Of a DNA stretch of 64,000 bases, positions 21,954-41,061 are shown piece after piece. A program made the translations under genes and the position numbers. The first letter of the stretch is position 1; every line of letters starts with the position of its first letter. A model generated the notes under the pieces. That model did not search any database. It was given only the letters and a program-made list of their open reading frames with translations, and was not told where the DNA came from. The DNA is from Mycolicibacterium aichiense (GTDB taxonomy: Bacteria > Actinomycetota > Actinomycetes > Mycobacteriales > Mycobacteriaceae): assembly GCF_010726245.1 (NCBI RefSeq), contig NZ_AP022561.1, positions 2,728,001 to 2,792,000 of the forward strand. Reading direction: 5' to 3'.

Positions 21954-21989
21954 GGGGGCCTCCTTGCTACCACTGCATGCCAACCCGGC

Positions 21990-22589: not shown

Positions 22590-24059
22590 TCAGGCGGTGG
22601 CGGCGGAACGACCGGCGCGGCGGCCGTAGAAGCTGCCGTCGCCGAGTGAGACACCGCTGGCGTAACCCCACGCCGCAAGCCCCGCGGTGCAGCGTCCCGC
22701 CGCGAACAGCCCGGGTATCGGGTGTCCGCTGACGTGAAGTACTGCGCCGTCCAATGAGGTCATCAGTCCGCCGAGCGTGAAACCACCGCAGCTGGCCCGC
22801 AAGTCGATCGCGCCGACCGGAGTCCCGACGGGCTTGATCCACTCCGGCTTCTTGTGCAGCAATGGATCCTCCCCGCGTGCGGCCGCCTCGTTATAGGCGC
22901 CGATCGTCGCTTGCAGGGAGCCGACCGGGAGACCGATCTCCGCTTCGAGCTCGGCGACCGTGTCACACACCCACGTCGCGGGCCGTTTGAGGAACGGAGT
23001 GGCCGATGTTGCCGCCATCGCGTCCTCTTGGGCGTCGCCGTCGATGATCAGGTAGGCGGTGTCCTCCTGCCGATACAGCGTCAGCTGGCCGATCCGGCCG
23101 GAGTACATGTCCTCGGGGACATACCGCTGGCCGAGCCCGTTGACGAGAACACCGCGCACGGTCTGTTGCGGATCGATGAGGAACGCCACCTCGGTGGCGT
23201 CCATGTGTGCGAGGTCAGCGCCGAGTGCCTGCGCCATCCGGATCGCGCGGCCGTCGTGCTGTTCGATGGAGGCGGCCGGCCGTCCCGCGATGGCCGGGGC
23301 GAACTGCTTGACCATCGACTCGCTGTAGGCGAAGCTGCCCGCGGCCAGCATGACTCCGCGCCGCGCGCGCACTCGCACCGTCTCGCCGTATTGTCGCGCC
23401 ACCACGCCCGCCACCCGGCCATCGGATTCGACGACCAGCGTCTGCACCCGCACGTCGTAGACAGCTCGGACGCCGAGTGCTGTAGCGGTTTCGACCAATG
23501 GCTTCATCAACATGAAACCGCCGCTCTTCTCGCCGGCGACTTTTCCGGTCATCTGCGGGATGTGGCCACGCGGAGCGGGTTCGGCGATCCTGTTGAACGG
23601 GTAGGCGTTCTCCCCGCCGGTGAACATCAGGCCCTGGTCGCCGGGCGGCTCCCAGCCGGGCTCGCCCCAGAACTCCGGCTTGAACGGCACACCGCAGTCC
23701 GTCAGCCAGTCGAAGTGCTCCAGGCTGCCGTCGCAGTAGTCCGCGATGCGGGTTTCATCGGCGCCGGGCCCCATGGCGACATTGAGGAATGCCGCCATAT
23801 TGGACGGCGAATCGGTGAAACCGCAGGCCTTTTGGATCGGTGTGCCGCCGCCCAGGTAGATGAACCCGCCGGCCATCGCCGCGGCGCCGCCCCAGGATCC
23901 GGTGCGCTCCAGCACCAGCACATCGGCACCCGCACGCGCCGATTCGACCGCTGCCGCCGCACCGGCGATGCCGTAGCCGACGATGACCACGTCGGCCTCG
24001 TGGTCCCAGTGGTCGATCGACGATGCAGGGACCGGGCTGACGTCATCTTCGACGGTCAT
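22590..24059 (-). CDS. FAD-dependent dehydrogenase, KstD/fumarate-reductase family (copy A)
   Basis: 489 aa from ATG 24059, overlapping the stop of the dioxygenase gene (ATGA). Dinucleotide loop VVIVGYGIAGAAAAVESARAG, then LVLERTGSWGGAAAMAGG, and the C-terminal FAD segment GLFAAGRCTAGLAAWGYASG. Shorter than KstD proper and in a separate branch of the family. It is the last gene of the first divergent arm (HsaA-like, HsaC-like, FAD enzyme). A close paralogue at 35772-37229 sits in the same gene order; by eye about three quarters of residues match. It probably desaturates or reduces a ring intermediate just before or after ring cleavage (inference). Confidence 0.83.
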   Translation of the reverse strand: MTVEDDVSPVPASSIDHWDHEADVVIVGYGIAGAAAAVESARAGADVLVLERTGSWGGAAAMAGGFIYLGGGTPIQKACGFTDSPSNMAAFLNVAMGPGADETRIADYCDGSLEHFDWLTDCGVPFKPEFWGEPGWEPPGDQGLMFTGGENAYPFNRIAEPAPRGHIPQMTGKVAGEKSGGFMLMKPLVETATALGVRAVYDVRVQTLVVESDGRVAGVVARQYGETVRVRARRGVMLAAGSFAYSESMVKQFAPAIAGRPAASIEQHDGRAIRMAQALGADLAHMDATEVAFLIDPQQTVRGVLVNGLGQRYVPEDMYSGRIGQLTLYRQEDTAYLIIDGDAQEDAMAATSATPFLKRPATWVCDTVAELEAEIGLPVGSLQATIGAYNEAAARGEDPLLHKKPEWIKPVGTPVGAIDLRASCGGFTLGGLMTSLDGAVLHVSGHPIPGLFAAGRCTAGLAAWGYASGVSLGDGSFYGRRAGRSAATA

Positions 24060-24964
24060 GGACGCATGGCCGCCGGAAGGTCGGATACCCACTGATGCCC
24101 CCAGTAGCTGTCTGCGGTGATTTCCTCTGCGGTGTAGTACATTTCGTCGACGCGCATCCCTTCGGTGCCGAATTCGATGTCCCAATCGCCGGGCGCGCGC
24201 ACGTAGAACGACACCATCTTGTCGTTGGTATGCCGACCCAGGGTCGACGATAGTGCAAAGCCCGCGGCGTTGACCCGATCTAGCGCCTGACCCACTGCGT
24301 CGAGCGAGTCGACTTCGACCATCAGGTGGATCAGGCCCGGATCGCGAACCGTTTGTGCGGGACAGATCGCCAAACTGTGGTGCCGTTGGTTGACACCCAT
24401 GAACCGCACCCGGATCGGCCCGAACTCGGGCGGCGCGGGGACCCGGAATGCGCCACGGGACGTGAACCCCAGGACCTCGGTGTAGAAGGCGAATGCTCCG
24501 TCGACGTCGAGCGCGGGCAACACGATGTGGCCCAGTCCCTGATTGCCGGTGACGAAACGCGCGCCGAACGGGGTCACGACAGGGGAGTGGTCGAGGACCG
24601 CGCCGTGGAAGACCTCCAGCGAGGTTCCGGCGGGATCGTCGAAGGCGATCACTTCCTCGACACGCCTGCTGTCTGCTTCATCCGGTAACAGTTGTTTGAA
24701 GGAGATACCGGCAGTGTCGAGTGCGGCCTTGACCTGCTCCAGGTCGGTGTGGTCGCGCACCTCCCATCCGACCGTGACGATTCTGTCCACATCACCGGGC
24801 ACGACGATGATGCGTGCGGCTCGTTCGTCCATCCGTAGGTACAGCGCTGACGCATCGGAACCCGTGCCCTGGGCGAAGCCGAGGACACCGAATGCGAAGT
24901 GGCGCCAGCGTTCGATATCGGAGGCGGCAACGGTGACGTAGCCCAGGCCTTTGATGAGACTCAT
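24056..24964 (-). CDS. HsaC-like extradiol ring-cleavage dioxygenase (copy A)
   Basis: 302-aa type I extradiol dioxygenase made of two VOC modules. The 2-His-1-Glu iron ligands are H146 (QGLGHIVLP), H213 (GLIHLMVEV) and E264 (WDIEFG). The conserved second-shell region NQRHHSLA and the TLGRHTNDKMVSFY strand match HsaC/BphC-type enzymes (M. tuberculosis HsaC is about 300 aa). HsaC cleaves the catecholic ring of secosteroids (3,4-DHSA). The start at 24964 gives the usual MSLIKGLGYV opening; the gene is 11 nt after the HsaA-like gene, so the hydroxylase and ring-cleavage enzyme are co-expressed. Copy B is at 37231. Confidence 0.9.
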   Translation of the reverse strand: MSLIKGLGYVTVAASDIERWRHFAFGVLGFAQGTGSDASALYLRMDERAARIIVVPGDVDRIVTVGWEVRDHTDLEQVKAALDTAGISFKQLLPDEADSRRVEEVIAFDDPAGTSLEVFHGAVLDHSPVVTPFGARFVTGNQGLGHIVLPALDVDGAFAFYTEVLGFTSRGAFRVPAPPEFGPIRVRFMGVNQRHHSLAICPAQTVRDPGLIHLMVEVDSLDAVGQALDRVNAAGFALSSTLGRHTNDKMVSFYVRAPGDWDIEFGTEGMRVDEMYYTAEEITADSYWGHQWVSDLPAAMRP

Positions 24965-24975
24965 GCTTCTCCGAC

Positions 24976-26160
24976 TCAGATCATCGCTCGCAGCGGACCC
25001 TGCGGGTCCACGCCCAGCGAGCTCAGAGCCGACGCGTGGTAGACCGTTCCGGGAACATGGATCGCGTGCGCCTGCCCGACATGCACATCCCGCCAATACC
25101 GTTGCAGCGGTTTGTCCATCCGCGCGGCATTGCCGCCGCACCGCGCGAAGATCTCGTCGACCGCTGATACCGCGCGCCACACAGCGCGGACCTGGGTACG
25201 GCGGCCCGCCGCCCGGTCCTCGAAGGACACCTCCTTGCCGGCGTCGACCAAGTCGTAGATGCGATCGGCGTTGGCCAGCAATTCCTGTCGGGCGGCGTTG
25301 ATGTCGGCGGCAGCTTCGCCGATGGCGTACATGACGTAGGGGTCGTCCTTGACTGCGACGCCACTGGCGTTCACGCGCTCACGCTGGTAGTCCAGCGCGG
25401 CGGCCAGGGCGCCCTCGGCGATCCCGATGGTCGCTGCGCTGATCCCCAGCGGGAACATCGTCGACCACGGCATCAGGTAGAGCGTGTCGGTCATTCCGGC
25501 TTCGCGCTGCGCGGTGCCGTCCATCACCTTCGTCGCATCCATCGTGCGATAGGACGGCACGAACGCCTCTTTGACGATGACATCCTTGGAGCCGGTGCCG
25601 CGCAGTCCGACGACATTCCAGGAATCCTCGACGATCTCGTAGTCCCGGCGGGGCAGGACCATGTGCAGCATCTGCGGCGGCATCAGAGGTTTGCCCTCGG
25701 CGTCACCGAGCATCGCGCCGAGGAAGATCCAGTCGCAGTGGTCGGTGCCAGAGCTGAATTGCCATCTGCCGGTGAAGATGTAACCGCCGTCGACGGGCGT
25801 TGCGACGCCCTGAGGAGCGTAGGGCGACGCGACCCAGGTGTCGATGTCATCGGCCCACACCTCGGCGGCGACCTTGGGATCGGCATACGCCAGCTGATAG
25901 GGATGCACACCGACCACGCCGTTGATCCAGCCGGCGGCCGGGTCGAGCGTGGCCGTGGCCATCACGGTCTCGGCGAACTCGCGAGGATGGACCTCCAACC
26001 CGCCGTGTGTCTTCGGCTGGAGCAGGCGGATATTGCCTGCCGATTTCATCAGCTTGACGGTCTCGTCGGTAAGCATGCCGATCTTCTCGGCCTCGGTTCC
26101 CTGCTCTCGCAGTCGATCGGCAACCTGGTGCACCCGGTCGATTACCCGCTCACTCATCAT
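24976..26160 (-). CDS. HsaA-like flavin-dependent hydroxylase, acyl-CoA dehydrogenase fold (copy A)
   Basis: 394 aa, the same length as M. tuberculosis HsaA, and similar along its whole length: LLQPKTHGGLEVHP, WINGVVGVHPYQLA, GGYIFTGRWQFSSGTDHCDW, VVGLRGTGSKDVIV, LQRYWRDVHVGQAHA. HsaA is the oxygenase part of a two-component FMN monooxygenase that hydroxylates the phenolic ring of 3-HSA; it needs a flavin reductase (HsaB). No HsaB-like gene is in the window. It heads the minus-strand arm and is divergent from the BVMO arm. An ordinary acyl-CoA dehydrogenase is unlikely, given the HsaA-like sequence and the dioxygenase partner. Confidence 0.88.
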   Translation of the reverse strand: MMSERVIDRVHQVADRLREQGTEAEKIGMLTDETVKLMKSAGNIRLLQPKTHGGLEVHPREFAETVMATATLDPAAGWINGVVGVHPYQLAYADPKVAAEVWADDIDTWVASPYAPQGVATPVDGGYIFTGRWQFSSGTDHCDWIFLGAMLGDAEGKPLMPPQMLHMVLPRRDYEIVEDSWNVVGLRGTGSKDVIVKEAFVPSYRTMDATKVMDGTAQREAGMTDTLYLMPWSTMFPLGISAATIGIAEGALAAALDYQRERVNASGVAVKDDPYVMYAIGEAAADINAARQELLANADRIYDLVDAGKEVSFEDRAAGRRTQVRAVWRAVSAVDEIFARCGGNAARMDKPLQRYWRDVHVGQAHAIHVPGTVYHASALSSLGVDPQGPLRAMI

Positions 26161-26258
26161 GTGGTCCTATCGTCGCTGGCTGACACTGATCGTGGACCGC
26201 AAGTGGTGCACCCGCCGCGGTGCTTCCCGGTCAGCGGAAAGCTGTTGTGGCCGTGCCC

Positions 26259-26624
26259 TCAGAACTCGATGTGCAGGTCGTCGGACACCGGCCTGGCCTG
26301 GCAACCCAGGATCAGGCCCTCGGCGAGGTCGTCGGGCTCGAGAATCTCGCAGCTGGCCATGTGCACCTCACCGCGTACGGCAGTCGCCACGCATGACCCG
26401 CAGTGGCCTTCACGGCAGGAGTGGGGGGCCGCGATTCCGGCTGAGATCAAGGTGTCGACGAGTGTGGCGTCCCGGGGCCACCGCAGATGGTGACTGGTTC
26501 CGTCCAGATCGACCCGGACGGTCGCGGTGTCGGCATTGCCGAAAGTGGTTGCCGCTGAGCTGGTGTCATCTCCAAGGAGGTCACCGGGCAATTCGCTGCG
26601 GTTGTCGACGTCTGACATGGGCAT
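26259..26624 (-). CDS. [2Fe-2S] plant-type ferredoxin, KshB C-terminal-domain-like
   Basis: 121 aa (ATG 26624; ATG 26618 also possible). An N-terminal 30-residue acidic/Ser-rich lead is followed by one ferredoxin domain with the ligand pattern C-x4-C-x2-C (CREGHCGSC) and a distal Cys in LILGCQARPVSDDLHIEF. The pattern is that of the C-terminal domain of KshB-type reductases, but the FAD/NAD domains are absent. It likely shuttles electrons to an oxygenase, possibly the KshA-like protein or a cytochrome P450 elsewhere. It lies between the two arms of cassette copy A; copy B has no equivalent. Confidence 0.87.
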   Translation of the reverse strand: MPMSDVDNRSELPGDLLGDDTSSAATTFGNADTATVRVDLDGTSHHLRWPRDATLVDTLISAGIAAPHSCREGHCGSCVATAVRGEVHMASCEILEPDDLAEGLILGCQARPVSDDLHIEF

Positions 26625-26670
26625 CGATTCTGCGGCCCGATGGCCGGGACGCGGCGTCTCTGCGTCCGGT

Positions 26671-26691
26671 CACCGGGAGACCGCCCCGGTG
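26671..26691. promoter_or_regulatory. 7-7-7 inverted repeat in divergent ferredoxin/BVMO promoter
   Basis: CACCGGG-AGACCGC-CCCGGTG with perfect 7-bp arms, centred between the ferredoxin start (26624) and the BVMO start (26723). It is suitable as an operator for both directions. The core CGGGARACC is shared with the repeat at 18949-18967. Confidence 0.45.
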
Positions 26692-26722
26692 CGAGAGCGC
26701 GGACCGCCTACCGTTTCGGCGT

Positions 26723-28336
26723 GTGAGCACTGGATCGAAGTCCGATGTCGATGTCGTCGTGGTGGGGGCCGGGTTCGCCGGCCTGTATGCCTTGCACAGG
26801 TTCCGCTCGCAGGGGCTGTCGGTGCGGGTGTTCGAGGGCGCACCTGATGTCGGCGGCACCTGGTACTTCAACCGCTATCCAGGCGCTCGCTGTGATGTCG
26901 AAAGCGTGGACTACTGCTATTCGTTCTCCGACGAGTTGCAGCAGGAGTGGACGTGGACCGAGAAGTACGCCACGCAGTCCGAGATCCTGGCGTACATCAA
27001 TTGGGTGGCCGACAAGCTGGACCTGCGCCGGGACATCACCTTCAACACTCGCGTGGTGGGCGCGGTGCTCGACGAGCAGACGGTGCGCTGGACGGTGAGC
27101 ACCGACGCAGGGGAGAGCGTCGTGGCGAGATTCGTGGTGATGGCAACAGGCCCCCTGTCAGCCTCCATCACACCGAAGTTCCCAGGGCTGGACAGCTTCC
27201 GAGGCGAGATCTACCACACAGCGCATTGGCCCCATGAGGGCGTCGACTTCACCGGCAAGCGCGTCGCCGTGATCGGTACTGGGTCTTCGGGAGTTCAATC
27301 CATCCCGATCATCGCCGAACAAGCCCAGCAGTTGTACGTGTTCCAGCGCACACCGAACTACAGCGTCCCGGCAGGCAACCGGCCGTTGACGGCCGAGGAA
27401 ATCGCCGACATCAAAGCCAACTACGCCGAGCGACGACGGGTATCGTGGCGCAGCGGCGGCGGGTCACCGCATGTCGCGCATCCGAAGCTGACCATGGACG
27501 CCACCCCCGAGGAACGGCGGGCCGCTTTCGAAACGCGCTGGGAACTGGGGGGCGTCTTGTTCTCCAAGACCTTCGCCGATCAGATGGTGTCCCTGGACGC
27601 AAACGAGGAAGCCCGCAAGTTCTACGAGGAGAAGATCCGCTCCGTCATCGACGATCCCGATCTGGCCGATTTGCTGATCCCCGACGACCATCCGATCGGC
27701 ACCAAGCGAATCTGCACCGACTCCAATTACTTCCAGACGTTCAATCGGCCCAACGTGACGCTGGTCAGCGTGAAGAAGACTCCTATCGAGTCGATCGACG
27801 AAACCGGAATCACCACCGCTGAAACGCACTTCGACATCGATGCACTGGTTTTGGCTACCGGGTTCGACGCCATGACCGGCTCTCTGGCCAAGATCGACAT
27901 CGTGGGTCGCGCCGGTCAACGGCTGGTGCAGGACTGGGCCGACGGGCCGCGCACGTATCTGGGATTGGGCACCGACGGGTTCCCCAATCTGTTTCTGGTG
28001 TCCGGCCCCGGGGCGCCGGCAGTGCTGGCCAACATGGTGCTGCATGCCGAGGCCCACGTGAACTGGATTTCCGATGCCATCTCATACCTCGACGAAAACG
28101 GTTACGCCGGAATCGAACCGACCGCCGACGCGGTGGACTCCTGGATCGCGGAATGCGCGCAACGCGCCGAGGCGACACTGTTCACCAAGGCCAACTCCTG
28201 GTACCTGGGCGCGAACGTGCCCGGCAAACCACGCCAATTCATGTTGTTCATCGGCGGCTTCGGCACCTACCTCGACATCTGCAACGAGGTGGCCGGCGCC
28301 GGGTACACGGGCTTCGATCTGCTCAAGGCGCCGTGA
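26723..28336 (+). CDS. Baeyer-Villiger monooxygenase, cyclohexanone/steroid type (copy A)
   Basis: 537 aa from GTG 26723, the start that places the FAD loop VVVGAGFAG near residue 12 as in copy B; the long open frame to 25922 lies inside the HsaA-like gene. The BVMO fingerprint is FRGEIYHTAHW, the second Rossmann motif VIGTGSSGVQ, and the C-terminal domain ends with NMVLHAEAHVNWI. It should oxidise a cyclic ketone to a lactone with NADPH and O2. It is directly followed, with no gap, by a mycofactocin-type SDR. Paralogue at 39454-41061. It may act on the C/D-ring part or another ketone of the island substrate. Confidence 0.9.
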   Translation: MSTGSKSDVDVVVVGAGFAGLYALHRFRSQGLSVRVFEGAPDVGGTWYFNRYPGARCDVESVDYCYSFSDELQQEWTWTEKYATQSEILAYINWVADKLDLRRDITFNTRVVGAVLDEQTVRWTVSTDAGESVVARFVVMATGPLSASITPKFPGLDSFRGEIYHTAHWPHEGVDFTGKRVAVIGTGSSGVQSIPIIAEQAQQLYVFQRTPNYSVPAGNRPLTAEEIADIKANYAERRRVSWRSGGGSPHVAHPKLTMDATPEERRAAFETRWELGGVLFSKTFADQMVSLDANEEARKFYEEKIRSVIDDPDLADLLIPDDHPIGTKRICTDSNYFQTFNRPNVTLVSVKKTPIESIDETGITTAETHFDIDALVLATGFDAMTGSLAKIDIVGRAGQRLVQDWADGPRTYLGLGTDGFPNLFLVSGPGAPAVLANMVLHAEAHVNWISDAISYLDENGYAGIEPTADAVDSWIAECAQRAEATLFTKANSWYLGANVPGKPRQFMLFIGGFGTYLDICNEVAGAGYTGFDLLKAP

Positions 28337-29970: not shown

Positions 29971-29987
29971 ACAACGAAGGAAACACC

Positions 29988-30782: not shown

Positions 30783-30784
30783 CT

Positions 30785-32148: not shown

Positions 32149-32252
32149 TCGGATGTGATCCGGTCGATTCCCAGTCACCGGCACATCGCGTGCACTGTGG
32201 CGACCACTGCGATGCAGATTGGAGGTACACACAGTGACGCGAAGGAGTTGGC

Positions 32253-33107
32253 ATGGCTGCAGACGATGACGATGTGGTGACCTACGAAGTCGTCGGCGGA
32301 ACGGCGGTGGTCACGATGAATCGGCCGCGGTACCGCAATGCGCAGAACTCCGTCATGACCTACGCACTCGATGCGGCGTTCCAACGGGCCGTCTCCGACG
32401 ACGATGTGCGCGTGATCGTCTTGGCCGGCAACGGAGATCATTTCAGCGCAGGCCACGACATCGGCACACCAGACCGCGACCACCATGTGTCCTACGAGAA
32501 CAAGGCCGCGCTCTGGTGGGATCACGTCGACAAAGAGGGCGGCGACATGCGCTACGCCCGCGAGGTCGAGGTGTATCTGGGCATGTGCCGGCGGTGGCGC
32601 GAGATCCCGAAACCCACGATCGCGATGGTGCACGGGGCGTGCATTGCCGGCGGACTCATGCTGGCCTGGGTGTGCGACCTGATCGTCGCCTCCGAGGACG
32701 CCTTCTTCTGTGATCCTGTGGTGCGAATGGGCATTCCCGGGGTCGAATACTTCGCGCACCCATGGATTCTGGGGTCCCGCTTCGCCAAAGAGATGCTGTT
32801 CACCGGGGACAAGTTCGGTGCGCAGCGCGCCTACGAGATCGGGATGGTCAGTCGAGTCGTGCCGAAGGCTGAACTCCGCGACGCGACGCTTGCGCTCGCG
32901 GAGCGCATCGCGACAATGCCGAGATTTGGTCTCGCGCTGACCAAGCGGGCGGTCAACCAGTGCGAAGACCAGATGGGACTGCGCAACGGTATGGATGCCG
33001 TGTTCGGGCTGCATCACTTCGCGCATGCGCACAATGTGGAGGTGGGCCAGGATTCGCTCGGTGGGCTGGATGCCAAGACGATGGCCGCACCTCGTAAACG
33101 TCCGTAG
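32253..33107 (+). CDS. enoyl-CoA hydratase/isomerase family protein
   Basis: 284-aa crotonase with a strong GAAGGAG ribosome site. NRPRYRNAQNSVM opening, first oxyanion-hole segment GDHFSAGHDIGT, second GACIAGGLMLAWVCDLIVASEDAFF. A 25-residue insert (HVSYENKAALWWDHVDKEGGDMR) follows the first oxyanion segment, as in several mycobacterial EchA proteins. The usual catalytic Glu positions are not clear to me, so hydratase, isomerase or hydrolase activity remains open. A 104-bp gap upstream suggests its own promoter. It would work with the acyl-CoA dehydrogenase and synthetase in CoA-dependent steps. Confidence 0.88.
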   Translation: MAADDDDVVTYEVVGGTAVVTMNRPRYRNAQNSVMTYALDAAFQRAVSDDDVRVIVLAGNGDHFSAGHDIGTPDRDHHVSYENKAALWWDHVDKEGGDMRYAREVEVYLGMCRRWREIPKPTIAMVHGACIAGGLMLAWVCDLIVASEDAFFCDPVVRMGIPGVEYFAHPWILGSRFAKEMLFTGDKFGAQRAYEIGMVSRVVPKAELRDATLALAERIATMPRFGLALTKRAVNQCEDQMGLRNGMDAVFGLHHFAHAHNVEVGQDSLGGLDAKTMAAPRKRP

Positions 33108-33192
33108 CCCAGAGCTTTCCACAGATACGCGTTCGTCCACAGCCGCGGCTGGAACGTTCAGAATTGTCGGTGACCCGACGTAGTATTCGAAC

Positions 33193-34476
33193 ATGGGTTC
33201 GATCACCGCGGCGCTGGATGCACTCGACGCCGCGGTCGAGATGCTGGGAGCAGCCGACATCGACGAGTTGCCCGTGCCGCAACGCTTTACGGCTCTGGAA
33301 CGACTCGAGACTGCGGTGCGTCGCCAGGTCGCGGTATCCCATGAGCAGATCACCCATCTCGTGCGGTACGAGGGCTGCCCGCCGATCGCAAACGTGTTGG
33401 CTGACGTGTTGCGGATCAGCCGAACTGCGGCCAAGCGCCGACTGCGTGACGCCGAACAACTGACCCCGCGCACCACGTTGACCGGCGACCCACTGGCGGC
33501 ACTGCTGCCCGAAACCGGCAGGGCCTGGGCGGCGGGTGAGCTGGACGGCGAGCATCTGCGGGTCATCCAGAAGTTCTTCCGCGATCTGCCCGATCACGTC
33601 GGCCCGGTCGAGGTGGACGACGCGGAACGCGCCCTGGCACAGCACGCCCGGACGATGCGCCCCGATCAGCTGGAGAAGGTCGCGGACCGGTTGGCCGTAC
33701 ACCTGAACCCCGACGGCAAGTTCTCCGAGGAGGACCGGGCGCGCAAGCGGGGCTTCCAATGGTGCGGGGGCCAGCGGCCGGACGGGATGAGCGTTGGAAA
33801 GCTGGTCGCCGATCCGGTGCTGCGGGCACAACTGGATGCGCTGTTCGCCAAAGTCGCCGCCCCGGGACCCGACGATGTGCGCAATCATGCCCAGCGGCAA
33901 CACGACGCATTGGCCGACGTGGTCGGTAGCTGTCTCGGAGATCCGAAACTGGGACAGCACAACGGACTTCCGGTGACCATGATAGTGACGACGACCTTGC
34001 AGGACCTGCAACGGCGTGCCGGGCACGCGGTCACCGCCGGCGGGACGCTGATCCCCGTCACGGACCTCATCAAAGCAGCAACGCCGTCGTACAACTACTT
34101 GGCGGTGTTCGATGGAGTCACCGGAAAGTCGCTCTGGCTGGGGCGCAGCAAGAGGCTGGCGTCGGCAGATCAGCGAATCATGTTGTTGGCCAAGTATCGT
34201 GGCTGTAGTGCGCCAGGCTGCACCGTCAACGGTTACAACAGCCAGGTCCACCATGCCGCCAAGGACTGGAAGCACGGCGGCAACACCGACGTCGACGACA
34301 TGACGCTGGCGTGCAAATGCGACAACCTGTTGGTCGAAAACGACGGCTGGAGCACCCGCCAACTTCCGAACGGTCGGACGGAGTGGCACCCGCCGCCGGA
34401 CGTACCCCTACGCGGCGGCACCAACGACTATCACCACCCGGAACGCCTGCTGGCCAAAGACGACGAGAAAGACTAA
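33193..34476 (+). CDS. DUF222/13E12-repeat family HNH endonuclease-like protein
   Basis: 427 aa. The N-terminal DUF222 region (LERLETAVRRQVAVSHEQITHLVRYEG to about residue 300) is followed by the HNH module CSAPGCTVNGYNSQVHHAAKDWKHGGNTDVDDMTLAC. This family is found in many near-copies in mycobacteria (the M. tuberculosis 13E12 proteins). Whether it is an active nuclease or a mobile element remnant is unclear. It lies between the two copies of the catabolic cassette and its stop overlaps the convergent TetR stop (CTAA). The frame is intact. Confidence 0.9.
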   Translation: MGSITAALDALDAAVEMLGAADIDELPVPQRFTALERLETAVRRQVAVSHEQITHLVRYEGCPPIANVLADVLRISRTAAKRRLRDAEQLTPRTTLTGDPLAALLPETGRAWAAGELDGEHLRVIQKFFRDLPDHVGPVEVDDAERALAQHARTMRPDQLEKVADRLAVHLNPDGKFSEEDRARKRGFQWCGGQRPDGMSVGKLVADPVLRAQLDALFAKVAAPGPDDVRNHAQRQHDALADVVGSCLGDPKLGQHNGLPVTMIVTTTLQDLQRRAGHAVTAGGTLIPVTDLIKAATPSYNYLAVFDGVTGKSLWLGRSKRLASADQRIMLLAKYRGCSAPGCTVNGYNSQVHHAAKDWKHGGNTDVDDMTLACKCDNLLVENDGWSTRQLPNGRTEWHPPPDVPLRGGTNDYHHPERLLAKDDEKD

Positions 34477-35090
34477 CTCGGAGCTGTCGGGGACGCTTCG
34501 CTCTGCATTGCGCGGATGGCCGGATCAATCCACAGCCGGAGGAGTTCGCGAAGTTCTGTGGAATCAGCCGGCGGCGTGATGATCAACGACTGCAGGGTCC
34601 GAAGAGAGATGTGCAGAACGTTGTCCACGGCACCTGGTGGCAGGGCAGACCAGTCGATGTCGAGCCCGATGAGCATCGCGCGGCCCTGGATTCGGGCGTT
34701 CGAGTTCTCGCGCAACACGATTTCAGCGAGCGCGGTCGCGCGTTGCGCTCGCACCATCAGCCCTACCAGAGGATCGCCCGGGAGTCGCTCGAGGGCGAGC
34801 GCAATCCCTTCGACCACGGCATCGGCGGGATCGGTGATACCGCGCAGAGACGCCTGTATTCCCTCGATGAAGCTTGTGGACGCCTCCGCCCCGACCGCCG
34901 CCATGAGCTGGTCGATATTGGCGAAGTAGTGATAGATCGTCTGGCGGGTCACTCCCAGGACTCGGGCGACGTCCGCGATGGTCGTGCGCTCACCGAACTG
35001 TTCAATCGCGCTGCGCGCGGCCGTGAGGATGCGGGCGATCGCGTCGTCGTCTGATGCCGGAACGTCGCCTCCCCAGCCGCGAGTCCGCAT
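34473..35090 (-). CDS. TetR-family transcriptional regulator
   Basis: 205 aa from ATG 35090 with CAGGAGACGGT just upstream. N-terminal helix-turn-helix ILTAARSAIEQFGERTTIADVARVLGVTRQTIYHYFANIDQLM is a textbook TetR DNA-binding domain. The C-terminal ligand domain includes ALERLPGDPLVGLMVRAQRATAL. It is separated from the HicB-like/HTH gene by a 263-bp gap that contains an inverted repeat at 35161-35189. It may regulate cassette copy B or itself. Confidence 0.88.
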   Translation of the reverse strand: MRTRGWGGDVPASDDDAIARILTAARSAIEQFGERTTIADVARVLGVTRQTIYHYFANIDQLMAAVGAEASTSFIEGIQASLRGITDPADAVVEGIALALERLPGDPLVGLMVRAQRATALAEIVLRENSNARIQGRAMLIGLDIDWSALPPGAVDNVLHISLRTLQSLIITPPADSTELRELLRLWIDPAIRAMQSEASPTAPS

Positions 35091-35160
35091 ACCGTCTCCT
35101 GACGCATCAATCGGCCGAAACCGCCGTTCGCCGGAACGCTACCGTACCCGAATTGCACAG

Positions 35161-35189
35161 ATCATACGAATGATGTTCACTGTGTATGA
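35161..35189. promoter_or_regulatory. inverted repeats upstream of TetR gene
   Basis: Two overlapping symmetries: ATCAT-ACGA-ATGAT (35161-35174) and TCATAC (35162-35167) with GTATGA (35184-35189). AT-rich and 70-100 bp before the TetR start. Candidate operator; otherwise the 263 bp between 35090 and 35354 show no gene. Confidence 0.35.
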
Positions 35190-35353
35190 CCGGGACACCG
35201 TTCAGTCCGAGGCATCAGGGGAGGTCCGTGATGTCCGCACGACGTGGACTGTTTACCGGCGAGCTTCAAATATTCTCTGCCACAAACCATTTGACGGTCT
35301 CTACTGGAGCGGTCGGGCTCTTTCCACAAGGGTGGCGACCAGATTGAAGACTG

Positions 35354-35743
35354 ATGCGCGTATATAAAATTGAGATCGTTCGTGACGGTCGCTGGTGGAT
35401 GATCCGCATTCCTGAAGTCCACGGTGCCACCCAGGTGCATCGACTCAAAGAAGCCGAGGCGATGGCCCGTGAATACGTCGCGCTCCATCTGAATGTGCCT
35501 CTCTATGAAATCAGCATCGAGATCACCAGCATCCGTATGAAGCGACCCGAGTTTCGTGAGATCGGGGCGATGGCAGAGAAGATTCGTGACCTCCGCGAGC
35601 AAGCCCGCCGGCTCGAGCGGGAATCGGTGGCCAGTGCCCGTGAGTTCGCCCACTGGCTCATCGCCAATGGGGTGCCTGTTCGCGATATCGCCGAGCTCCT
35701 CGACGTCTCCTCACAACGAGTGAGCCAACTGACGAAGGACTAG
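35354..35743 (+). CDS. HicB-like domain protein with C-terminal helix-turn-helix (orphan antitoxin-like)
   Basis: 129 aa. The first 50 residues look like a HicB-type partial RNase-H-like sheet (YKIEIVRDGRWWMIRIPEV, then EAEAMAREYVALHLNVP). A coiled helix of about 30 residues (IGAMAEKIRDLREQARRLERES) follows. The last 30 residues form a small HTH (GVPVRDIAELLDVSSQRVSQL). This is the layout of a DNA-binding HicB antitoxin, but no HicA toxin lies beside it. A paralogue of the N-terminal part is encoded at 58244. It starts at ATG 35354 with GAAGA five bases ahead. Role unknown, probably regulatory. Confidence 0.7.
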   Translation: MRVYKIEIVRDGRWWMIRIPEVHGATQVHRLKEAEAMAREYVALHLNVPLYEISIEITSIRMKRPEFREIGAMAEKIRDLREQARRLERESVASAREFAHWLIANGVPVRDIAELLDVSSQRVSQLTKD

Positions 35744-35771
35744 TGATCGCCGATGGTTCGGCGACCGATGG

Positions 35772-37229
35772 CTACCCGCGGGCAGCGGAGCGTCCGGCCC
35801 GGCGGCCGTAGAAACTGCCGTCTCCCAACGAGATGCCGCTGGCATACCCCCACGCCGCGAGGCCGGCGGTGCAGCGTCCCGCCGCGTACAGACCGGGGAT
35901 CGGCTCGCCACTGACGTGCAACACGTGCGCGTCGAGGTTGGTGCGCAACCCACCCAGCGGGAACCCGCCGGTCGCATGCCGCAGATCGAGGGCGCCGACC
36001 GGGCTGCCAATCGGCCGCAGCCAGCGCGCCTTCTTGTGCAATAGCGGATCCTCGCCGTGAGCGGCGGCAGCGTTGTAGCGCGCCACCGTGTCCTGCAGGC
36101 TGCCAAACGGCAAGCCGAGCTCCGCCTCGAGTTCCGCGACGGTCTCGCATACCCACTTGGGCTTGCGCAGAATCAGTTTCGGTGTCTGCGATGCCACAGC
36201 CTCGTCGTGAGCGTCGCCGTCGAGGATGAGATATGCCGTGTCGTCTTGGTGATAGAGCGTGAGCTGACCGGCACGGCCGGGATAGGTGTCTTCGGCGACG
36301 TAGCGCTGCCCGCGCGCATTGACCAGGATGCCGCGCACCAACTGCTGCGGATCGACCAGGAACGCGACCTCGGTCGCATCAACATGGGCCAGGTCCGCGC
36401 CGAGCGCCTGTGCCATCCGGATGCCTTGCCCGTCATGCTGTTCCACCGCGGACACCGGCCTCCCGGCGATCCGCGGCGTGAAGCGGGCCATCATCGACTC
36501 GTTGTAGGCGAAGCTGCCGGTGCCCAGGACCACGCCGCGCCGGGCCCGGATGGTGACCTCGGTGCCATACTGGCGTGCGGTGATCCCGCTGACGCGGCCG
36601 TCGGACTCGACCACGAGAGCCTGCACGCGGACGTCGTAGAGCGCGCGGACACCCAGGTCCGTCGCTCTCTGCACCAACGGCTTCATCAACATGAAGCCGG
36701 CGCTGGCCTGACCCTGCTTCTTGTTCTGCATCTGCGGGACATGTCCGCGCGGCGCAGGCTCGGCGATGGTGTTGAAGGGGTAGGCGTCCTCGCCGCCGCT
36801 GTACATCAGCCCTTGGTCGCCCAGCGGTTCCCACCCGGGCTCACCGAAGAACTCCGGTTTGAACGGCACCCCGCAGGCCACCAGCCACTCGAAGTGGGCG
36901 ACACTGCCCTCGCAGTAGTCGGCGATGCGCTCCCGGTCGGCACCCGGTCCCATGGCGGCATCCAGGAATGCCGCCATGTTCTCGGCGGAATCATCGAACC
37001 CACACGCCTTTTGAAGTGCGGTGCCGCCGCCCATGTAGATGAACCCGCCGGCCAGCGCGGCAGCCCCACCCCAGGCGCCGGCTCGTTCGAGCACCAGGAC
37101 ATCAGCACCGGCACCGGCAGCCTCGACCGCCGCGGCCGCTCCGGCGACACCGTAGCCGGCGACAACCACGTCGGCTTCGTGGTCCCACGTCGCCACCGAG
37201 GCTGCCGGAACCGGGCGGACGCCGGTCAT
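35772..37229 (-). CDS. FAD-dependent dehydrogenase, KstD/fumarate-reductase family (copy B)
   Basis: 485 aa from ATG 37229, one nucleotide after the dioxygenase stop. FAD loop VVVAGYGVAGAAAAVEAAGAG, LVLERAGAWGGAAALAGG, and C-terminal GLYAAGRCTAGLAAWGYASG. Nearly collinear with the protein at 22590-24059; about three quarters identical by eye, diverging mainly in the surface loops and the N-terminus. It belongs to a duplicated cassette. A different substrate or timing for the two copies is likely, but not visible in the sequence. The longer open frame to 37400 is inside the dioxygenase gene. Confidence 0.83.
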   Translation of the reverse strand: MTGVRPVPAASVATWDHEADVVVAGYGVAGAAAAVEAAGAGADVLVLERAGAWGGAAALAGGFIYMGGGTALQKACGFDDSAENMAAFLDAAMGPGADRERIADYCEGSVAHFEWLVACGVPFKPEFFGEPGWEPLGDQGLMYSGGEDAYPFNTIAEPAPRGHVPQMQNKKQGQASAGFMLMKPLVQRATDLGVRALYDVRVQALVVESDGRVSGITARQYGTEVTIRARRGVVLGTGSFAYNESMMARFTPRIAGRPVSAVEQHDGQGIRMAQALGADLAHVDATEVAFLVDPQQLVRGILVNARGQRYVAEDTYPGRAGQLTLYHQDDTAYLILDGDAHDEAVASQTPKLILRKPKWVCETVAELEAELGLPFGSLQDTVARYNAAAAHGEDPLLHKKARWLRPIGSPVGALDLRHATGGFPLGGLRTNLDAHVLHVSGEPIPGLYAAGRCTAGLAAWGYASGISLGDGSFYGRRAGRSAARG

Positions 37230-37230
37230 G

Positions 37231-38139
37231 TCAGGGCCGCATGGCGGCGGGCAGGTCGCCGACCCACTTGTGACCCCAGTAGCTGTCCGCCGTGATTTCC
37301 TCAGCGGTGTAATGGTTTTCGTCGATCCGCACGCCGCCGGTGCCGAATTCGATATCCCAGTCGCCGGGAGCGCGGACGTAGAACGACACCATCTTGTCAT
37401 TGGTGTGCCGACCGAGTGTGGACGACAGCTGGAACTCCTGCGCGGCGATGCGGTCCAGCGCCTCTCCGACCGCGTCGAGGGTGTCGACCTCCACCATCAT
37501 GTGAATCAAGCCGGGATCGCGCCGGTGCATCGCCGGGGCGATCGCCAAGCTGTGATGGCGTTCGTTGATGCCGAGGAAGCGGATCCGGATCGGCCCGAAC
37601 TCCTTGGGCAACGGCACCCGGTATGCACCGCGGGACACGAAGCCCAGGACCTGGGTGTAGAAGTCGAACAGGCCGGGTGCGTCGAGCGCCGGCAGCACGA
37701 CGTGGCCCAATCCTTGGTCGCCGGTGACGAATCGGGCGCCGAACGGGGTCACCACCGGGCTGTGATCCAGCACCGCGCCGTGGAAGACCTCCAGGTGGGT
37801 GCCCGCCGGGTCGTCGAACGCCACGACCTCCTCGACTCGCCGGTCGTCCGCCTCGGACTGCGACAGCTGTGTGTAGGCGACCCCCGCGCGCTCGAGCAGC
37901 TCTTTCACCTGTGCCAGCGCGGCGTGATCGCGGACCTCCCAGCCGACCGTCGCGATCCGATCACCGTCGCCGGGCACCACGATGATCCGCGCCGCCCGTT
38001 CGTCCATACGCAGGTACAGCGCGGACGGATCGGGTCCCTTGCCTTCGGCGAATCCCAGTACGCCGAAGGCGAATTGGCGCCACCGATCGATGTCAGCGGT
38101 GTGAATCGTGACGTAGCCGAGGCTCTTCAGGAGGCTCAC
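37231..38139 (-). CDS. HsaC-like extradiol ring-cleavage dioxygenase (copy B)
   Basis: 302 aa from GTG 38139. The same iron ligands as copy A are present: H146 (QGLGHVVLP), H213 (GLIHMMVEV) and E264 (WDIEFG), with the conserved NERHHSLA and TLGRHTNDKMVSFY segments. Two VOC modules in tandem. It is 13 nt downstream of the HsaA-like gene. It should cleave a catechol next to its hydroxyls. Both copies are full length and keep all ligands, so both are expected to be active. Confidence 0.9.
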   Translation of the reverse strand: MSLLKSLGYVTIHTADIDRWRQFAFGVLGFAEGKGPDPSALYLRMDERAARIIVVPGDGDRIATVGWEVRDHAALAQVKELLERAGVAYTQLSQSEADDRRVEEVVAFDDPAGTHLEVFHGAVLDHSPVVTPFGARFVTGDQGLGHVVLPALDAPGLFDFYTQVLGFVSRGAYRVPLPKEFGPIRIRFLGINERHHSLAIAPAMHRRDPGLIHMMVEVDTLDAVGEALDRIAAQEFQLSSTLGRHTNDKMVSFYVRAPGDWDIEFGTGGVRIDENHYTAEEITADSYWGHKWVGDLPAAMRP

Positions 38140-38152
38140 GGGTGCGCTCCGA

Positions 38153-39337
38153 TCAGATCATCGCCCGCAGTGGGCCCTGCGGATCGACACCGAACGAGCT
38201 CAGAGCCGACGCGTGATAGACCGTGCCCGGCACGTGGATGGCGTGGGCCATCCCGGTGTGGGCGTCGCGCCAGTAACGCTGCAGCGGCTTGTCCATCCGC
38301 ATCGCATTGCCGCCGGAGCGGGCGAAGATCTCGTCGACGGCGCTGACCGCACGCCACACCGCACGTACCTGGGTGCGCCGCCCGGCGGCGCGGTCCTCGA
38401 ACGAGACCTCTTTGCCGGAATCCACCATGTCGTAGATCCGGTCCACGTTCGCCAGGATCTCCTGGCGGGCGGCGTTAATGTCGGCGGCGGCCTCGCCGAT
38501 CGCGTACATCACGTAAGGGTCGTCCTTGATGGCTGTGCCTGCCGCACTGACCCGCTCACGCTGATAGTCCAGGTGTGCGGCCAGCGCGCCTTCGCAGATG
38601 CCGATCGTGGCCGAGGAGATGCCCAATGGGAACATCGTCGACCACGGCATCAGGTAGAGGGTGTCGGTCATGCCGGCCTCGCGCTGGGCGGTGCCGTCCA
38701 TGACCTTGAACGCGTCCATCACGCGGTACTCGGGCACGAACGCGTCCTTGACGATGACGTCCTTGGAGCCGGTGCCCCGCAACCCCACCACATCCCAGGA
38801 GTCCTCGACGATTTCGTAGTCCTTGCGCGGCAAGATCATGTGCAGCATCTGCGGTGGCATCTGCACCTTGCCGTCGGCATCGCTTTTGATGGCGCCCAGG
38901 AAGATCCAGTCGCAGTGGTCGGTCCCGGAGCTGAACTGCCAACGGCCGTTGAAGATGTAGCCGCCGTCGACCGGCCGGGCGATGCCCTGCGGGGCGTAGG
39001 GCGAGGCCACCCAGGTGTCGACGTCGTCGGCCCAGATCTCCTCGGCCACCCGTGGGTCGGCATAGGCCAGCTGATAGGGATGCACGCCGACGACGCCGTT
39101 GATCCAGCCCGCGGCGGGGTCGAGTGCGGCAATCGCCATCACGGTCTCGGCGAACTCCCGCGGGTGCACTTCCAGACCTCCGTACTTGGCCGGCTGAAGA
39201 AGGCGGATATGGCCGGCTTCCTTCATCGCCTTGACGGTCTGATCGGTGAGCTTGCCGATTTTCTCGGCCTCAACGGCCTGCTCGCGAAGCTGGTCAGCGA
39301 TCTCCATGGTCTTGTCGAGCACCGAAGCAGTCATCAT
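38153..39337 (-). CDS. HsaA-like flavin-dependent hydroxylase, acyl-CoA dehydrogenase fold (copy B)
   Basis: 394 aa, close paralogue of the protein at 24976-26160. Same motifs: LLQPAKYGGLEVHP, GGYIFNGRWQFSSGTDHCDW, VVGLRGTGSKDVIV, LQRYWRDAHTGMAHA. Likely the oxygenase component of a two-component FMN monooxygenase that adds an ortho hydroxyl before extradiol cleavage. The needed flavin reductase is not in the window. It is the first gene of the minus-strand arm of cassette B; 116 bp separate it from the divergent BVMO. Confidence 0.88.
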   Translation of the reverse strand: MMTASVLDKTMEIADQLREQAVEAEKIGKLTDQTVKAMKEAGHIRLLQPAKYGGLEVHPREFAETVMAIAALDPAAGWINGVVGVHPYQLAYADPRVAEEIWADDVDTWVASPYAPQGIARPVDGGYIFNGRWQFSSGTDHCDWIFLGAIKSDADGKVQMPPQMLHMILPRKDYEIVEDSWDVVGLRGTGSKDVIVKDAFVPEYRVMDAFKVMDGTAQREAGMTDTLYLMPWSTMFPLGISSATIGICEGALAAHLDYQRERVSAAGTAIKDDPYVMYAIGEAAADINAARQEILANVDRIYDMVDSGKEVSFEDRAAGRRTQVRAVWRAVSAVDEIFARSGGNAMRMDKPLQRYWRDAHTGMAHAIHVPGTVYHASALSSFGVDPQGPLRAMI

Positions 39338-39453
39338 GCATCCTTAGTCCAGGTCTGGGCTGTTGATCTCATCCTGAACCCGCGAGGCCGTCAGTACCGG
39401 GCAATGTCTCGATGAGCGGGGCTACGTCAGAATTTGGTCCTACTCTGCTGGAC

Positions 39454-41061
39454 ATGAGCGCAGCGGAGGAACTCGACGTGGTCGTGGTCGGCGCCGGATT
39501 CGCCGGGCTGTACGCGCTGCACAAGTTCCGCGGGCAGGGGCTGTCGGTCCGTGTTTTCGAGGCGGCCCCCGAGGTGGGCGGCACCTGGTATTTCAACCGT
39601 TACCCGGGAGCCCGATGTGACGTCGAAAGCGTTGACTACAGCTACTCGTTCTCCGACGAACTGCAGCAGGAATGGACGTGGACCGAGAAGTACGCCACCC
39701 AAGCGGAAATACTGGCCTACCTGAATTGGGTCGCCGACCAGCTCGACCTGCGCCGCGACATCAGCTTCGACTCCCGGGTGATCTCAGCGGTCCTCGACGA
39801 AGGCACGCTGCGCTGGTCGGTGACTACCGAGGACGGCCGGATGACCACTGCCCGGTTCGTGGTGATGGCGACCGGGGCGTTGTCGGCCGCCATCACGCCG
39901 GCGTTCGACGGGCTGGACACCTTCGGCGGGGAGATCTATCACACCGCGCACTGGCCACACGAGGGTGTGGACTTCGCCGGCAAGCGGGTCGCGGTCATCG
40001 GCACGGGTTCCTCAGGGATCCAATCGATCCCGATCTTCGCCGAACAGGCGCAGCACCTGTATGTCTTCCAGCGCACCCCCAACTACAGCATCCCGGCGGG
40101 CAACTCCGCGTTGACCGCCGAGCAGGTTGCCGAGGTCAAGGCGAATTACGCCGAGCGCCGGCGGATCTCGATGCGAAGCGGCGGCGGCTCGCCGTATGTG
40201 GGCACGACCACACCCACCATGGCGGCGTCGCCCGAGGAGCGCCGCGCCGCGTTCGAGAAGCGTTGGAGCCTCGGCGGTGTGCTGTTCTCCAAGACGTTCC
40301 CCGATCAGCTCACCGACCAGGCCGCCAACGACGAGGCGCGGCGGTTCTGGGAAGAGAAGATCCGTGCGGTCATCGATGATCCCGCGGTCGCCGAACTGTT
40401 GATACCCGACGATCATCCGATCGGGACCAAGCGAATCTGCACCGATTCCAACTACTTTCAGACCTTCAACCGGCCGAACGTGACGTTGATCAGCGTCCGC
40501 CGCACCCCGATCGTGTCCGTCGACCGGACCGGCATCGCCACCTCCGCAGAGCACGTGGATCTGGACGCGATCGTGTTCGCCACCGGATTCGACGCGCTGA
40601 CAGGGGCTTTGGGCAAGATCGATATCGTCGGGCGCGGGGGAGAGCGCCTGGCCGACGACTGGGCCGACGGCCCGCGCAGCTACCTGGGTCTGGGCGACGA
40701 CGGTTTCCCCAACCTGTTCGTGGTAACCGGCCCGGGGGCGCCGGCCGTGCTGGCGAATATGGTCCTGCACGCCGAGGCACACGTGGATTGGATCGCCGCC
40801 GCCATCGGCTATCTCGACGAGCATGGGTACGCCGGCATCGAGGCGCGCCCGGACGCGGTTGAGAACTGGCTCGCCGAGCTCGACCAGCGCGCCGCGACCA
40901 CGCTGTTCCCTAAAGCCAACTCGTGGTATCTGGGTGCCAATGTGCCCGGTAAGCCACGGGTTTTCATGCTCTTCATCGGCGGCTTCGGGACCTACAACGA
41001 CATCTGCGCCGAGGTCGCCGCTGACGGATACCGGGGCTTCGACCTGATCAGGATGAGCTAG
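39454..41061 (+). CDS. Baeyer-Villiger monooxygenase, cyclohexanone/steroid type (copy B)
   Basis: 535 aa from ATG 39454; the ATG at 39412 would add 14 residues not shared with copy A. FAD loop VVVGAGFAGLYAL, BVMO fingerprint FGGEIYHTAHW, NADPH loop VIGTGSSGIQ. It aligns end to end with the enzyme at 26723-28336, with roughly 75-80% matches by eye. Unlike copy A it has no SDR downstream; an HsaD-like hydrolase on the other strand follows. It should convert a cyclic ketone into a lactone. Confidence 0.9.
   Translation: MSAAEELDVVVVGAGFAGLYALHKFRGQGLSVRVFEAAPEVGGTWYFNRYPGARCDVESVDYSYSFSDELQQEWTWTEKYATQAEILAYLNWVADQLDLRRDISFDSRVISAVLDEGTLRWSVTTEDGRMTTARFVVMATGALSAAITPAFDGLDTFGGEIYHTAHWPHEGVDFAGKRVAVIGTGSSGIQSIPIFAEQAQHLYVFQRTPNYSIPAGNSALTAEQVAEVKANYAERRRISMRSGGGSPYVGTTTPTMAASPEERRAAFEKRWSLGGVLFSKTFPDQLTDQAANDEARRFWEEKIRAVIDDPAVAELLIPDDHPIGTKRICTDSNYFQTFNRPNVTLISVRRTPIVSVDRTGIATSAEHVDLDAIVFATGFDALTGALGKIDIVGRGGERLADDWADGPRSYLGLGDDGFPNLFVVTGPGAPAVLANMVLHAEAHVDWIAAAIGYLDEHGYAGIEARPDAVENWLAELDQRAATTLFPKANSWYLGANVPGKPRVFMLFIGGFGTYNDICAEVAADGYRGFDLIRMS

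What the first reader, a model, noticed from the sequence alone, without database searches (positions are those of the whole stretch)
22590..41061. Duplicated catabolic cassette: FAD enzyme + HsaC-like + HsaA-like facing a BVMO
Both units (22590-28336 and 35772-41061) hold the same four genes in the same order and orientation, with proteins of matching length (489/485, 302/302, 394/394, 537/535 aa). All visible active-site residues are kept in both copies. The spacers differ: copy A has an extra ferredoxin gene. This looks like an old segmental duplication kept by selection, perhaps for two related ring substrates or two successive rings. An HsaA/HsaC pair permanently linked to a BVMO and a KstD-relative is not an arrangement I know from the cholesterol regulon.
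Basis: partly seen in the sequence, partly recalled or inferred. Interest (0 to 1): 0.75.

Follow-up and report, generated by a model that had tools for sequence, protein, structure and literature searches.

The report
Two diverged steroid cassettes side by side
A soil mycobacterium carries two look-alike gene sets for breaking down steroids next to each other; they do not look like a recent copy of one another but like two versions that parted long ago and ended up together.

Summary
Units 22590-28336 and 35772-41061 hold the same four genes in the same order (74/78/85/78% protein identity, 76% DNA), under purifying selection (dN/dS 0.11-0.17): Kst4d-type dehydrogenase, HsaC-like, HsaA-like and steroid-monooxygenase-type BVMO. 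An HsaD-like hydrolase lies beside unit B.

Unit A proteins are closer to copies in genomes outside the B-carrying set than to their partner in B (57 of 71, 45 of 59, 49 of 49, 42 of 53). All four gene trees separate A from B. Holding them together is rejected in a concatenated tree (p 2e-72), weakly by BVMO (p 0.024) and not by HsaA alone (p 0.12).

Unit A belongs to a conserved mycobacterial steroid cluster that, by synteny, matches the C-19+ cluster. Unit B is an extra lineage found, in the genomes sampled, in one clade (M. rhodesiae, M. sphagni, strain M26); some members have only B. How B arose is open.

Most likely role: ring-A degradation of 3-keto-5alpha- and 20-keto steroids by two parallel sets sharing one HsaD. 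No function was tested.

The parts
22590..24059 (-). Unit A: Kst4d-type 3-ketosteroid dehydrogenase (489 aa)
   Evidence: best solved relative 4at0 (RHA1 3-ketosteroid-delta4-(5alpha)-dehydrogenase), 781 bits; NCBIfam NF005512 922 bits, cut-off 812
24056..24964 (-). Unit A: HsaC-like extradiol dioxygenase (302 aa); overlaps the previous gene
   Evidence: 2zi8 288 bits; TIGR03213 373 bits over cut-off 366; HsaC model 357 under cut-off 450
24976..26160 (-). Unit A: HsaA-like flavin monooxygenase (394 aa)
   Evidence: 2or0 561 bits, 3afe 301 bits; HsaA model 365 under cut-off 450
26259..26624 (-). Unit A only: [2Fe-2S] ferredoxin (121 aa)
   Evidence: matches the C-terminal part of TIGR02160 and fdx_plant, below their cut-offs; found in most A-type units of the fetched loci, in no B-type unit (tblastn E 1e-10), whose HsaA-BVMO gap of 10-142 bp leaves no room for it
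26723..28336 (+). Unit A: steroid-monooxygenase-type BVMO (537 aa from GTG)
   Evidence: 4aos steroid monooxygenase 822 bits, phenylacetone monooxygenase 634 bits
28337..32148 (+). Unit A flank: three SDRs, F420-type luciferase-like oxidoreductase, SnoaL-like protein
   Evidence: Pfam; TIGR03619 240 bits over cut-off 167 for 30785-31630; several of the same genes beside unit A in many A-only loci
32149..35771 (.). Stretch between the A cluster and the B unit: enoyl-CoA hydratase 32253-33107, DUF222 33193-34476, TetR 34473-35090, short ORF 35354-35743
   Evidence: Pfam; position between the two units in loci that carry both
35772..37229 (-). Unit B: Kst4d-type dehydrogenase (485 aa)
   Evidence: 4at0 744 bits; NF005512 919 bits
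37231..38139 (-). Unit B: HsaC-like extradiol dioxygenase (302 aa)
   Evidence: 2zi8 285 bits
38153..39337 (-). Unit B: HsaA-like flavin monooxygenase (394 aa)
   Evidence: 2or0 563 bits
39412..41061 (+). Unit B: steroid-monooxygenase-type BVMO (549 aa from ATG 39412, or 535 aa from ATG 39454)
   Evidence: 4aos 817 bits; conserved start region
41113..42075 (-). HsaD-like meta-cleavage-product hydrolase, the only one seen beside the two units
   Evidence: 2vf2 229 bits; NF045632 273 under cut-off 400; groups with HsaDs of B carriers
17912..21983 (.). A-cluster backbone: Dabb protein, old-yellow-enzyme relative, Abhydrolase_3 esterase, IclR regulator
   Evidence: Pfam; conserved order in many A-only loci
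15092..17014 (+). A-cluster backbone: third, more distant BVMO-like protein
   Evidence: Pfam; about 29% identity to the other two
3226..6213 (.). KstD (3226-4932, minus) and KshA (5026-6213, plus)
   Evidence: KstD: NF009479 1066 bits over cut-off 793; KshA_C 307 bits; same KstD-KshA pair in M. neoaurum ATCC 25795 locus L187
42130..46938 (+). Outer flank of unit B: cyclase, MscS-type channel with cNMP-binding domain, DAO oxidoreductase; conserved beside B units

Best explanation
Two homologous steroid ring-A cassettes of different ancestry stand side by side. Unit A is the resident member of a widespread mycobacterial steroid cluster that matches the C-19+ cluster. Unit B is a separately evolved version that the common ancestor of the M. 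rhodesiae / M. sphagni / strain M26 clade already had, perhaps by horizontal gain. Each unit is predicted to take a 3-ketosteroid through Kst4d (delta-4 double bond), then, with the KstD and KshA of the same region opening ring B, through HsaA (4-hydroxylation of the phenol) and HsaC (meta-cleavage). One HsaD would serve both. The BVMO is predicted to turn a 20-keto side chain into a 17-acetate, which the linked Abhydrolase_3 esterases could hydrolyse. Shown: homology, gene order, trees, selection. Inferred: every reaction, the substrate (3-keto-5alpha and 20-keto pregnane-type steroids), the shared HsaD, and how B arrived.
For: Unit A is closer to copies in genomes outside the B-carrying set than to unit B in most comparisons. 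All four gene trees separate them; concatenated AU test p 2e-72, and p 4e-5 with the M26 group included. The 18 B carriers among 30 chosen genomes form one clade in an rpoB+rpoC+gyrA tree, support 100/100. The cluster backbone of window, M. rhodesiae and M26 groups with the M. fortuitum and M. chlorophenolicum groups, much as unit A does, and M26 keeps most of that backbone without unit A. Enzyme assignment. KstD-KshA context as in M. neoaurum ATCC 25795, whose KstD2 and KstD3 lie in a C-19+ homologue (PMC5962712, passage).
Against: HsaA alone does not reject A+B as one clade (AU p 0.121), BVMO does so weakly (p 0.024); HsaC and Kst4 were not AU-tested. Test groups were named after the first tree was seen. 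B lies outside all A-type units only in the concatenated tree (support 91); the HsaC and Kst4 trees nest B among A-type units. Kst4 of unit A has another affinity (L022 and the M. llatzerense group), so units are mosaic and concatenation mixes histories. No donor of B was found. The BVMO substrate was not tested. M. neoaurum has a second contig with two KstD-like genes (L188), and the C-19+ paper was not held, so the C-19+ match is an inference. PMC12239570 (section read) links progesterone use in M. smegmatis to another locus, MSMEG_4862.
Confidence: 0.6

Rival explanations
1. In-situ segmental duplication in the ancestor of the present host group, kept by selection.
For: Same order and orientation, 13 kb apart, equal divergence of both blocks; HsaA alone does not reject it.
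Against: Concatenated AU p 2e-72; A closer to copies outside the B-carrying set than to B; each version found alone; the ferredoxin difference follows the lineages.
Confidence: 0.06
2. Old duplication deep in the mycobacteria; most lineages later lost B, and a few lost A. Both units are then vertical paralogues.
For: B branches outside all A-type units in the concatenated tree (support 91 for the A side); B carriers are one clade in the species tree.
Against: Needs B losses in the other sampled lineages: 24 of 396 genus genomes, the window's own included, have a match of 90% or more to the B HsaA.
Confidence: 0.26
3. Unit A, not B, is the newcomer: transferred from a M. fortuitum-like donor next to resident B.
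For: B is in 23 of the 25 rpoB-clade members, A in 16 of 25; A nests beside the M. fortuitum group.
Against: The backbone around A, present without A in M26, has a similar placement, so A and backbone look co-inherited. 18 of the 25 were chosen because they carry B.
Confidence: 0.15
4. The cassettes act on other cyclic compounds (diterpenoids, biphenyl-like aromatics), not steroids.
For: HsaC-like proteins pass the biphenyl-diol dioxygenase model and fail the HsaC model.
Against: Relatives of Kst4d, steroid monooxygenase, KshA and KstD in one region.
Confidence: 0.12

Closest known systems
C-19+ steroid gene cluster of M. smegmatis and its homologue in M. neoaurum ATCC 25795 (PMC5962712, PMC10672877: passages seen)
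   Same: KstD and KshA neighbours with ring-degradation genes; M. neoaurum ATCC 25795 loci L187 and L023 carry KstD, KshA, BVMO3, Dabb, OYE, Abh3, IclR, Kst4, HsaC, HsaA, ferredoxin and BVMO as the window's A cluster does, and an HsaD
   Different: L023 shows one unit; the window has a second, diverged unit beside it and one HsaD next to B. M. smegmatis sequence was not compared
Plasmid pRHL1 steroid cluster of Rhodococcus jostii RHA1 (function unknown according to PMC4810484, passages seen)
   Same: HsaA 69%, HsaC 62%, HsaD 62%, KstD 63%, KshA 59% identity
   Different: KshA beside HsaA; no match to the two BVMOs over 40% of their length in the stretch fetched; plasmid-borne
Steroid monooxygenase of Rhodococcus rhodochrous (4aos; organism recalled and from PMC12239570)
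   Same: closest solved relative of both BVMOs (817 and 822 bits)
   Different: activity not tested here
pdc progesterone cluster of Caenibius tardaugens (PMC12239570: abstract, passages, two sections read)
   Same: a type I BVMO and a luciferase-like protein near steroid genes
   Different: its BVMO is 30.4% identical to the R. rhodochrous enzyme (paper); the window's luciferase-like protein is of the F420 type; ring genes are not part of pdc

Membership tests
HsaA (NCBIfam NF045629 equivalog) | score over curated cut-off 450 | tested here: not met
   365 and 387 bits; related to HsaA, closest to 2or0
HsaC (NCBIfam NF045631 equivalog) | score over curated cut-off 450 | tested here: not met
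   357 and 362 bits
Biphenyl-2,3-diol 1,2-dioxygenase (TIGR03213) | score over curated cut-off 366.45 | tested here: met
   373 and 374 bits; a narrow pass, and the model name does not prove the substrate
HsaD (NCBIfam NF045632 equivalog) | score over curated cut-off 400 | tested here: not met
   273 bits
Kst4d | subfamily model NF005512 over cut-off 812; catalytic Tyr, Tyr, Ser (recalled) | tested here: met
   922 and 919 bits; motifs in both units, aligned with 4at0 for unit A. The model is named only FAD-binding protein
KstD (NF009479 equivalog), gene 3226-4932 | score over curated cut-off 793 | tested here: met
   1066 bits
Steroid monooxygenase (type I BVMO) | converts progesterone to testosterone acetate | not testable with these tools
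   sequence closest to 4aos
C-19+ cluster | KstD and KshA neighbours plus ring-A genes, no KstR box near them | tested here: met
   KstR consensus recalled
C-19+ cluster | orthology with M. smegmatis MSMEG_2851-2901 (range recalled) | not tested
   M. smegmatis sequence not reached; the original paper not held
In-situ duplication | A and B sister to each other | tested here: not met
   HsaA alone inconclusive
pdc progesterone cluster | BVMO and LLM with TetR and LuxR regulators | tested here: inconclusive
   BVMO, an F420-type LLM and TetR present; no LuxR domain among the 50 window proteins given to Pfam; no direct comparison with pdc proteins made

The most novel reading that the evidence does not exclude
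The cassette is the missing actinobacterial progestogen module, the native home of steroid-monooxygenase-type BVMOs, and this clade runs two long-diverged, isofunctional versions of it, specialised for different steroid ring stereochemistry or side chains and sharing one HsaD.
Probability: 0.3. Interest if true: 0.6.

Novelty: new variant of a known kind. Interest (0 to 1): 0.38.

Why it matters
Relatives of Kst4d and of steroid monooxygenase sit here in one conserved unit with ring-cleavage genes, which suggests a physiological role (20-keto and 5alpha-steroids) and a prediction for the related pRHL1 cluster of unknown function. The A-only, B-only and A+B species form a natural experiment for asking what a second catabolic version adds. 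It also warns that neighbouring look-alike operons need not be tandem duplicates.

Tried and rejected
In-situ duplication: tested with four gene trees, concatenation, AU tests and plain identities; rejected, with HsaA alone inconclusive. Unit A as the newcomer: my first model; no longer the main one after searches showed M26 keeping most of the A backbone without unit A. KstR control: one motif at 47510 only. A shared operator between the divergent promoters: the conserved stretch upstream of unit B's BVMO is more likely its start-codon region, so no operator is claimed. Plasmid origin: a near-identity DNA search with unit A found one Rhodococcus match at 71%; a protein search with the unit-B HsaA found 25 plasmid records, the best at 69%. 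YN00 dN/dS failed for most distant pairs; NG86 values are given and dS is near saturation. The pairing rule gave the B unit of L089, which has no B-type BVMO, its neighbour's BVMO; that unit was left out of the B set. One motif expression was written wrongly for Kst4; one search gives the corrected one (RY..ED.Y in 65 of 77 rows, both window copies included). The BVMO fingerprint is in 84 of 89 rows.
Full report
What is there. The window lies in a single-contig 5.93 Mb genome close to Mycolicibacterium rhodesiae (97% over 10 kb of rpoB, rpoC and gyrA; the handle G053 is taken for M. rhodesiae DSM 44223 because its coordinates fit locus L001). Two four-gene units, 22590-28336 (A) and 35772-41061 (B), match over nearly their whole length at 76% DNA identity. 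Protein identities are 74% (FAD enzyme), 78% (HsaC-like), 85% (HsaA-like) and 78% (BVMO). NG86 dN/dS between A and B is 0.172, 0.145, 0.114 and 0.148 in that order, with dS near 1.

What the genes are. The FAD enzyme is Kst4d-type (4at0, 744-781 bits). The HsaC-like and HsaA-like proteins are relatives of the steroid enzymes 2zi8 (285-288 bits) and 3afe/2rfq (287-325 bits), and the hydrolase beside unit B is a relative of HsaD, but all fail the HsaC, HsaA and HsaD equivalog cut-offs. The HsaA-like protein is closest to 2or0 (561-563 bits); the protein of the RHA1 plasmid locus L075 is a relative of 2or0, not 2or0 itself. The BVMO is closest to steroid monooxygenase 4aos (817-822 bits, against 589-634 for phenylacetone monooxygenase). 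The same window holds a KstD that passes its equivalog model, KshA, a third BVMO-like protein, SDRs, an F420-type luciferase-like oxidoreductase and two Abhydrolase_3 esterases.

Distribution. In 396 genus genomes 269 have an HsaA-like match at E 1e-100 or better; this includes a more distant family at about 60% identity. Twenty-four, the window's own genome included, have a match of 90% or more to the unit-B protein: 19 at 95% or more and 5 at 90%. Of the 19, fifteen also have an A-type match of 85-87% on the same contig; four (G018, G156, G286, G313) do not, two of them having only a 59-62% second match. The five at 90% each have one match. The named loci L001-L073 come from the best 80 of 457 stretches that resemble the unit-B HsaA, so they are not a survey. 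In the 96 loci held, 78 units have HsaA, HsaC and BVMO together by its distance rule, the window's two not counted; this includes both units of two-unit genomes, two units from outside the genus (L074, L078), one genome counted twice (L007 and L096) and the mispaired L089 unit.

Two lineages, not a duplication. The trees of HsaA, HsaC, Kst4, BVMO and HsaD were quick searches with SH-aLRT support (the BVMO print-out was cut in the middle). In each of the four unit genes A and B of the window fall in separate clades. In the concatenated HsaA+HsaC+BVMO tree of 80 units, A units of the two-unit genomes nest (99*) beside the M. fortuitum and M. chlorophenolicum groups, and the B units and the M26 group lie outside a clade of all other mycobacterial units (support 91), unresolved towards each other. 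Forcing A and B into one clade costs 245 log units (AU p 2e-72), or 182 with the M26 group included (p 4e-5). Single genes are weaker: BVMO p 0.024, HsaA p 0.121, not rejected; HsaC and Kst4 were not tested. Against a simple 'B is oldest' reading, the HsaC and Kst4 trees nest B among A-type units. Groups were named after seeing the first tree. Without any tree: unit-A proteins are closer to copies in genomes outside the B-carrying set than to their own partner in 57 of 71, 45 of 59, 49 of 49 and 42 of 53 comparisons; unit-B proteins in 30 of 71, 30 of 59, 45 of 49 and 2 of 53 (HsaA, HsaC, Kst4, BVMO).

Which is the extra one. In an rpoB+rpoC+gyrA tree of 30 chosen genomes the 18 B carriers form one clade (100/100), with four B-only genomes (M26 group) sister to the other 14, of which 11 have both units and 3 only B. 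An rpoB tree of 50 genomes puts 25 in that clade (99/94): 15 with both, 8 with B only, one with an A-type unit only (G009; its second match was not looked at) and one with no match at all (G043). Eighteen of the 25 were picked because they carry B, so the proportions are biased. The backbone around unit A (IclR, esterase, Dabb, BVMO3, old yellow enzyme; loci with at least four of the five) of the window, M. rhodesiae and M26 forms a clade (100*) in a place like that of unit A. M26 keeps most of this backbone, without the old yellow enzyme, about 350 kb from its B unit, with a Kst4 relative (77%) next to KstD but without HsaA, HsaC or BVMO of unit A. So unit A looks inherited with the backbone and lost in M26, and B looks like the extra set. 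Kst4 of unit A has a different affinity from its neighbours, a sign of mosaic exchange. Whether B came by transfer or is a relic of an old duplication is open.

Anatomy that follows the lineages. The ferredoxin belongs to most A-type units in the loci and to no B-type one, so it need not be explained by change after a duplication. The B-type loci were found through HsaA; in each with the stretch complete (L028 is cut) HsaC and HsaD are there too, while the BVMO is missing in L012, L080 and L089 and only partly matched in L006 and L095 (one genome), and Kst4 is missing in L012, L013, L079, L080, L081 and L089. The window's HsaD groups with those of B carriers, so both units may share it; HsaD genes elsewhere in the genome were not searched for.

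Relation to what is known. M. neoaurum ATCC 25795 (loci L187, L023) has the A-type cluster with the KstD-KshA pair. PMC5962712 (passage seen) says that KstD2 and KstD3 of this strain lie in a cluster homologous to the M. [quoted passage not shown] PMC5270728 (passage seen) lists MSMEG_2867 and 2869 as KstD and MSMEG_2870 as KshA, none with a KstR operator, an arrangement like that of L187. M. neoaurum has a second contig with two KstD-like genes but no KshA match (L188), so the C-19+ identification is an inference from synteny. PMC12239570 (section read) ties progesterone use by M. smegmatis to MSMEG_4862 in what it calls the ADD+ cluster, by personal communication, which is a different locus number. 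R. jostii RHA1 plasmid pRHL1 carries a related cluster; PMC4810484 (passages seen) says the function of the pRHL1 steroid genes is unknown. The listings of paper searches (titles and abstract openings) show no description of a steroid-monooxygenase-type BVMO linked to Kst4d, HsaA and HsaC in mycobacteria; the library is open-access only, and the C-19+, Kst4d and steroid monooxygenase papers were not held.

Verdict. The repeat is real and under selection, its content is a steroid ring-A cassette of a known cluster kind, and its two copies are diverged versions rather than a tandem duplicate. Function is predicted, not shown.

Noticed in passing
42130-45752: A dCache/HAMP adenylate-type cyclase is followed directly by an MscS-type channel with a cyclic-nucleotide-binding domain: a likely cyclase and cyclic-nucleotide-gated channel pair, conserved beside B units.
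   Followed up: no
63025-63369: Direct repeat with a shift of 102 bp (83% over 245 bp) and a weaker one of 204 bp: a short tandem array near the window end.
   Followed up: no
L030, L031, L054, L062 near 10001: HsaA-like gene followed by IclR with no HsaC, Kst4 or BVMO match in the stretch: eroded A-type clusters that kept HsaA.
   Followed up: partly
L076:7381-16751: A Streptomyces plasmid carries an HsaA relative (57%) and a flavin reductase directly after a mycofactocin biosynthesis operon.
   Followed up: no
L061: A contig titled Acidobacteria MAG carries HsaA (88% to unit A) and HsaD (80%) of mycobacterial type, perhaps a binning error.
   Followed up: no
28337-29970: Two neighbouring SDR genes are 50% identical, a tandem pair inside the A cluster.
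   Followed up: no
G018 (M. pinniadriaticum), L193:12700-16000: A third, more distant HsaA-HsaC-KshA set (HsaA 62-63%, HsaC 64%, KshA 58%) in a B-only genome.
   Followed up: no
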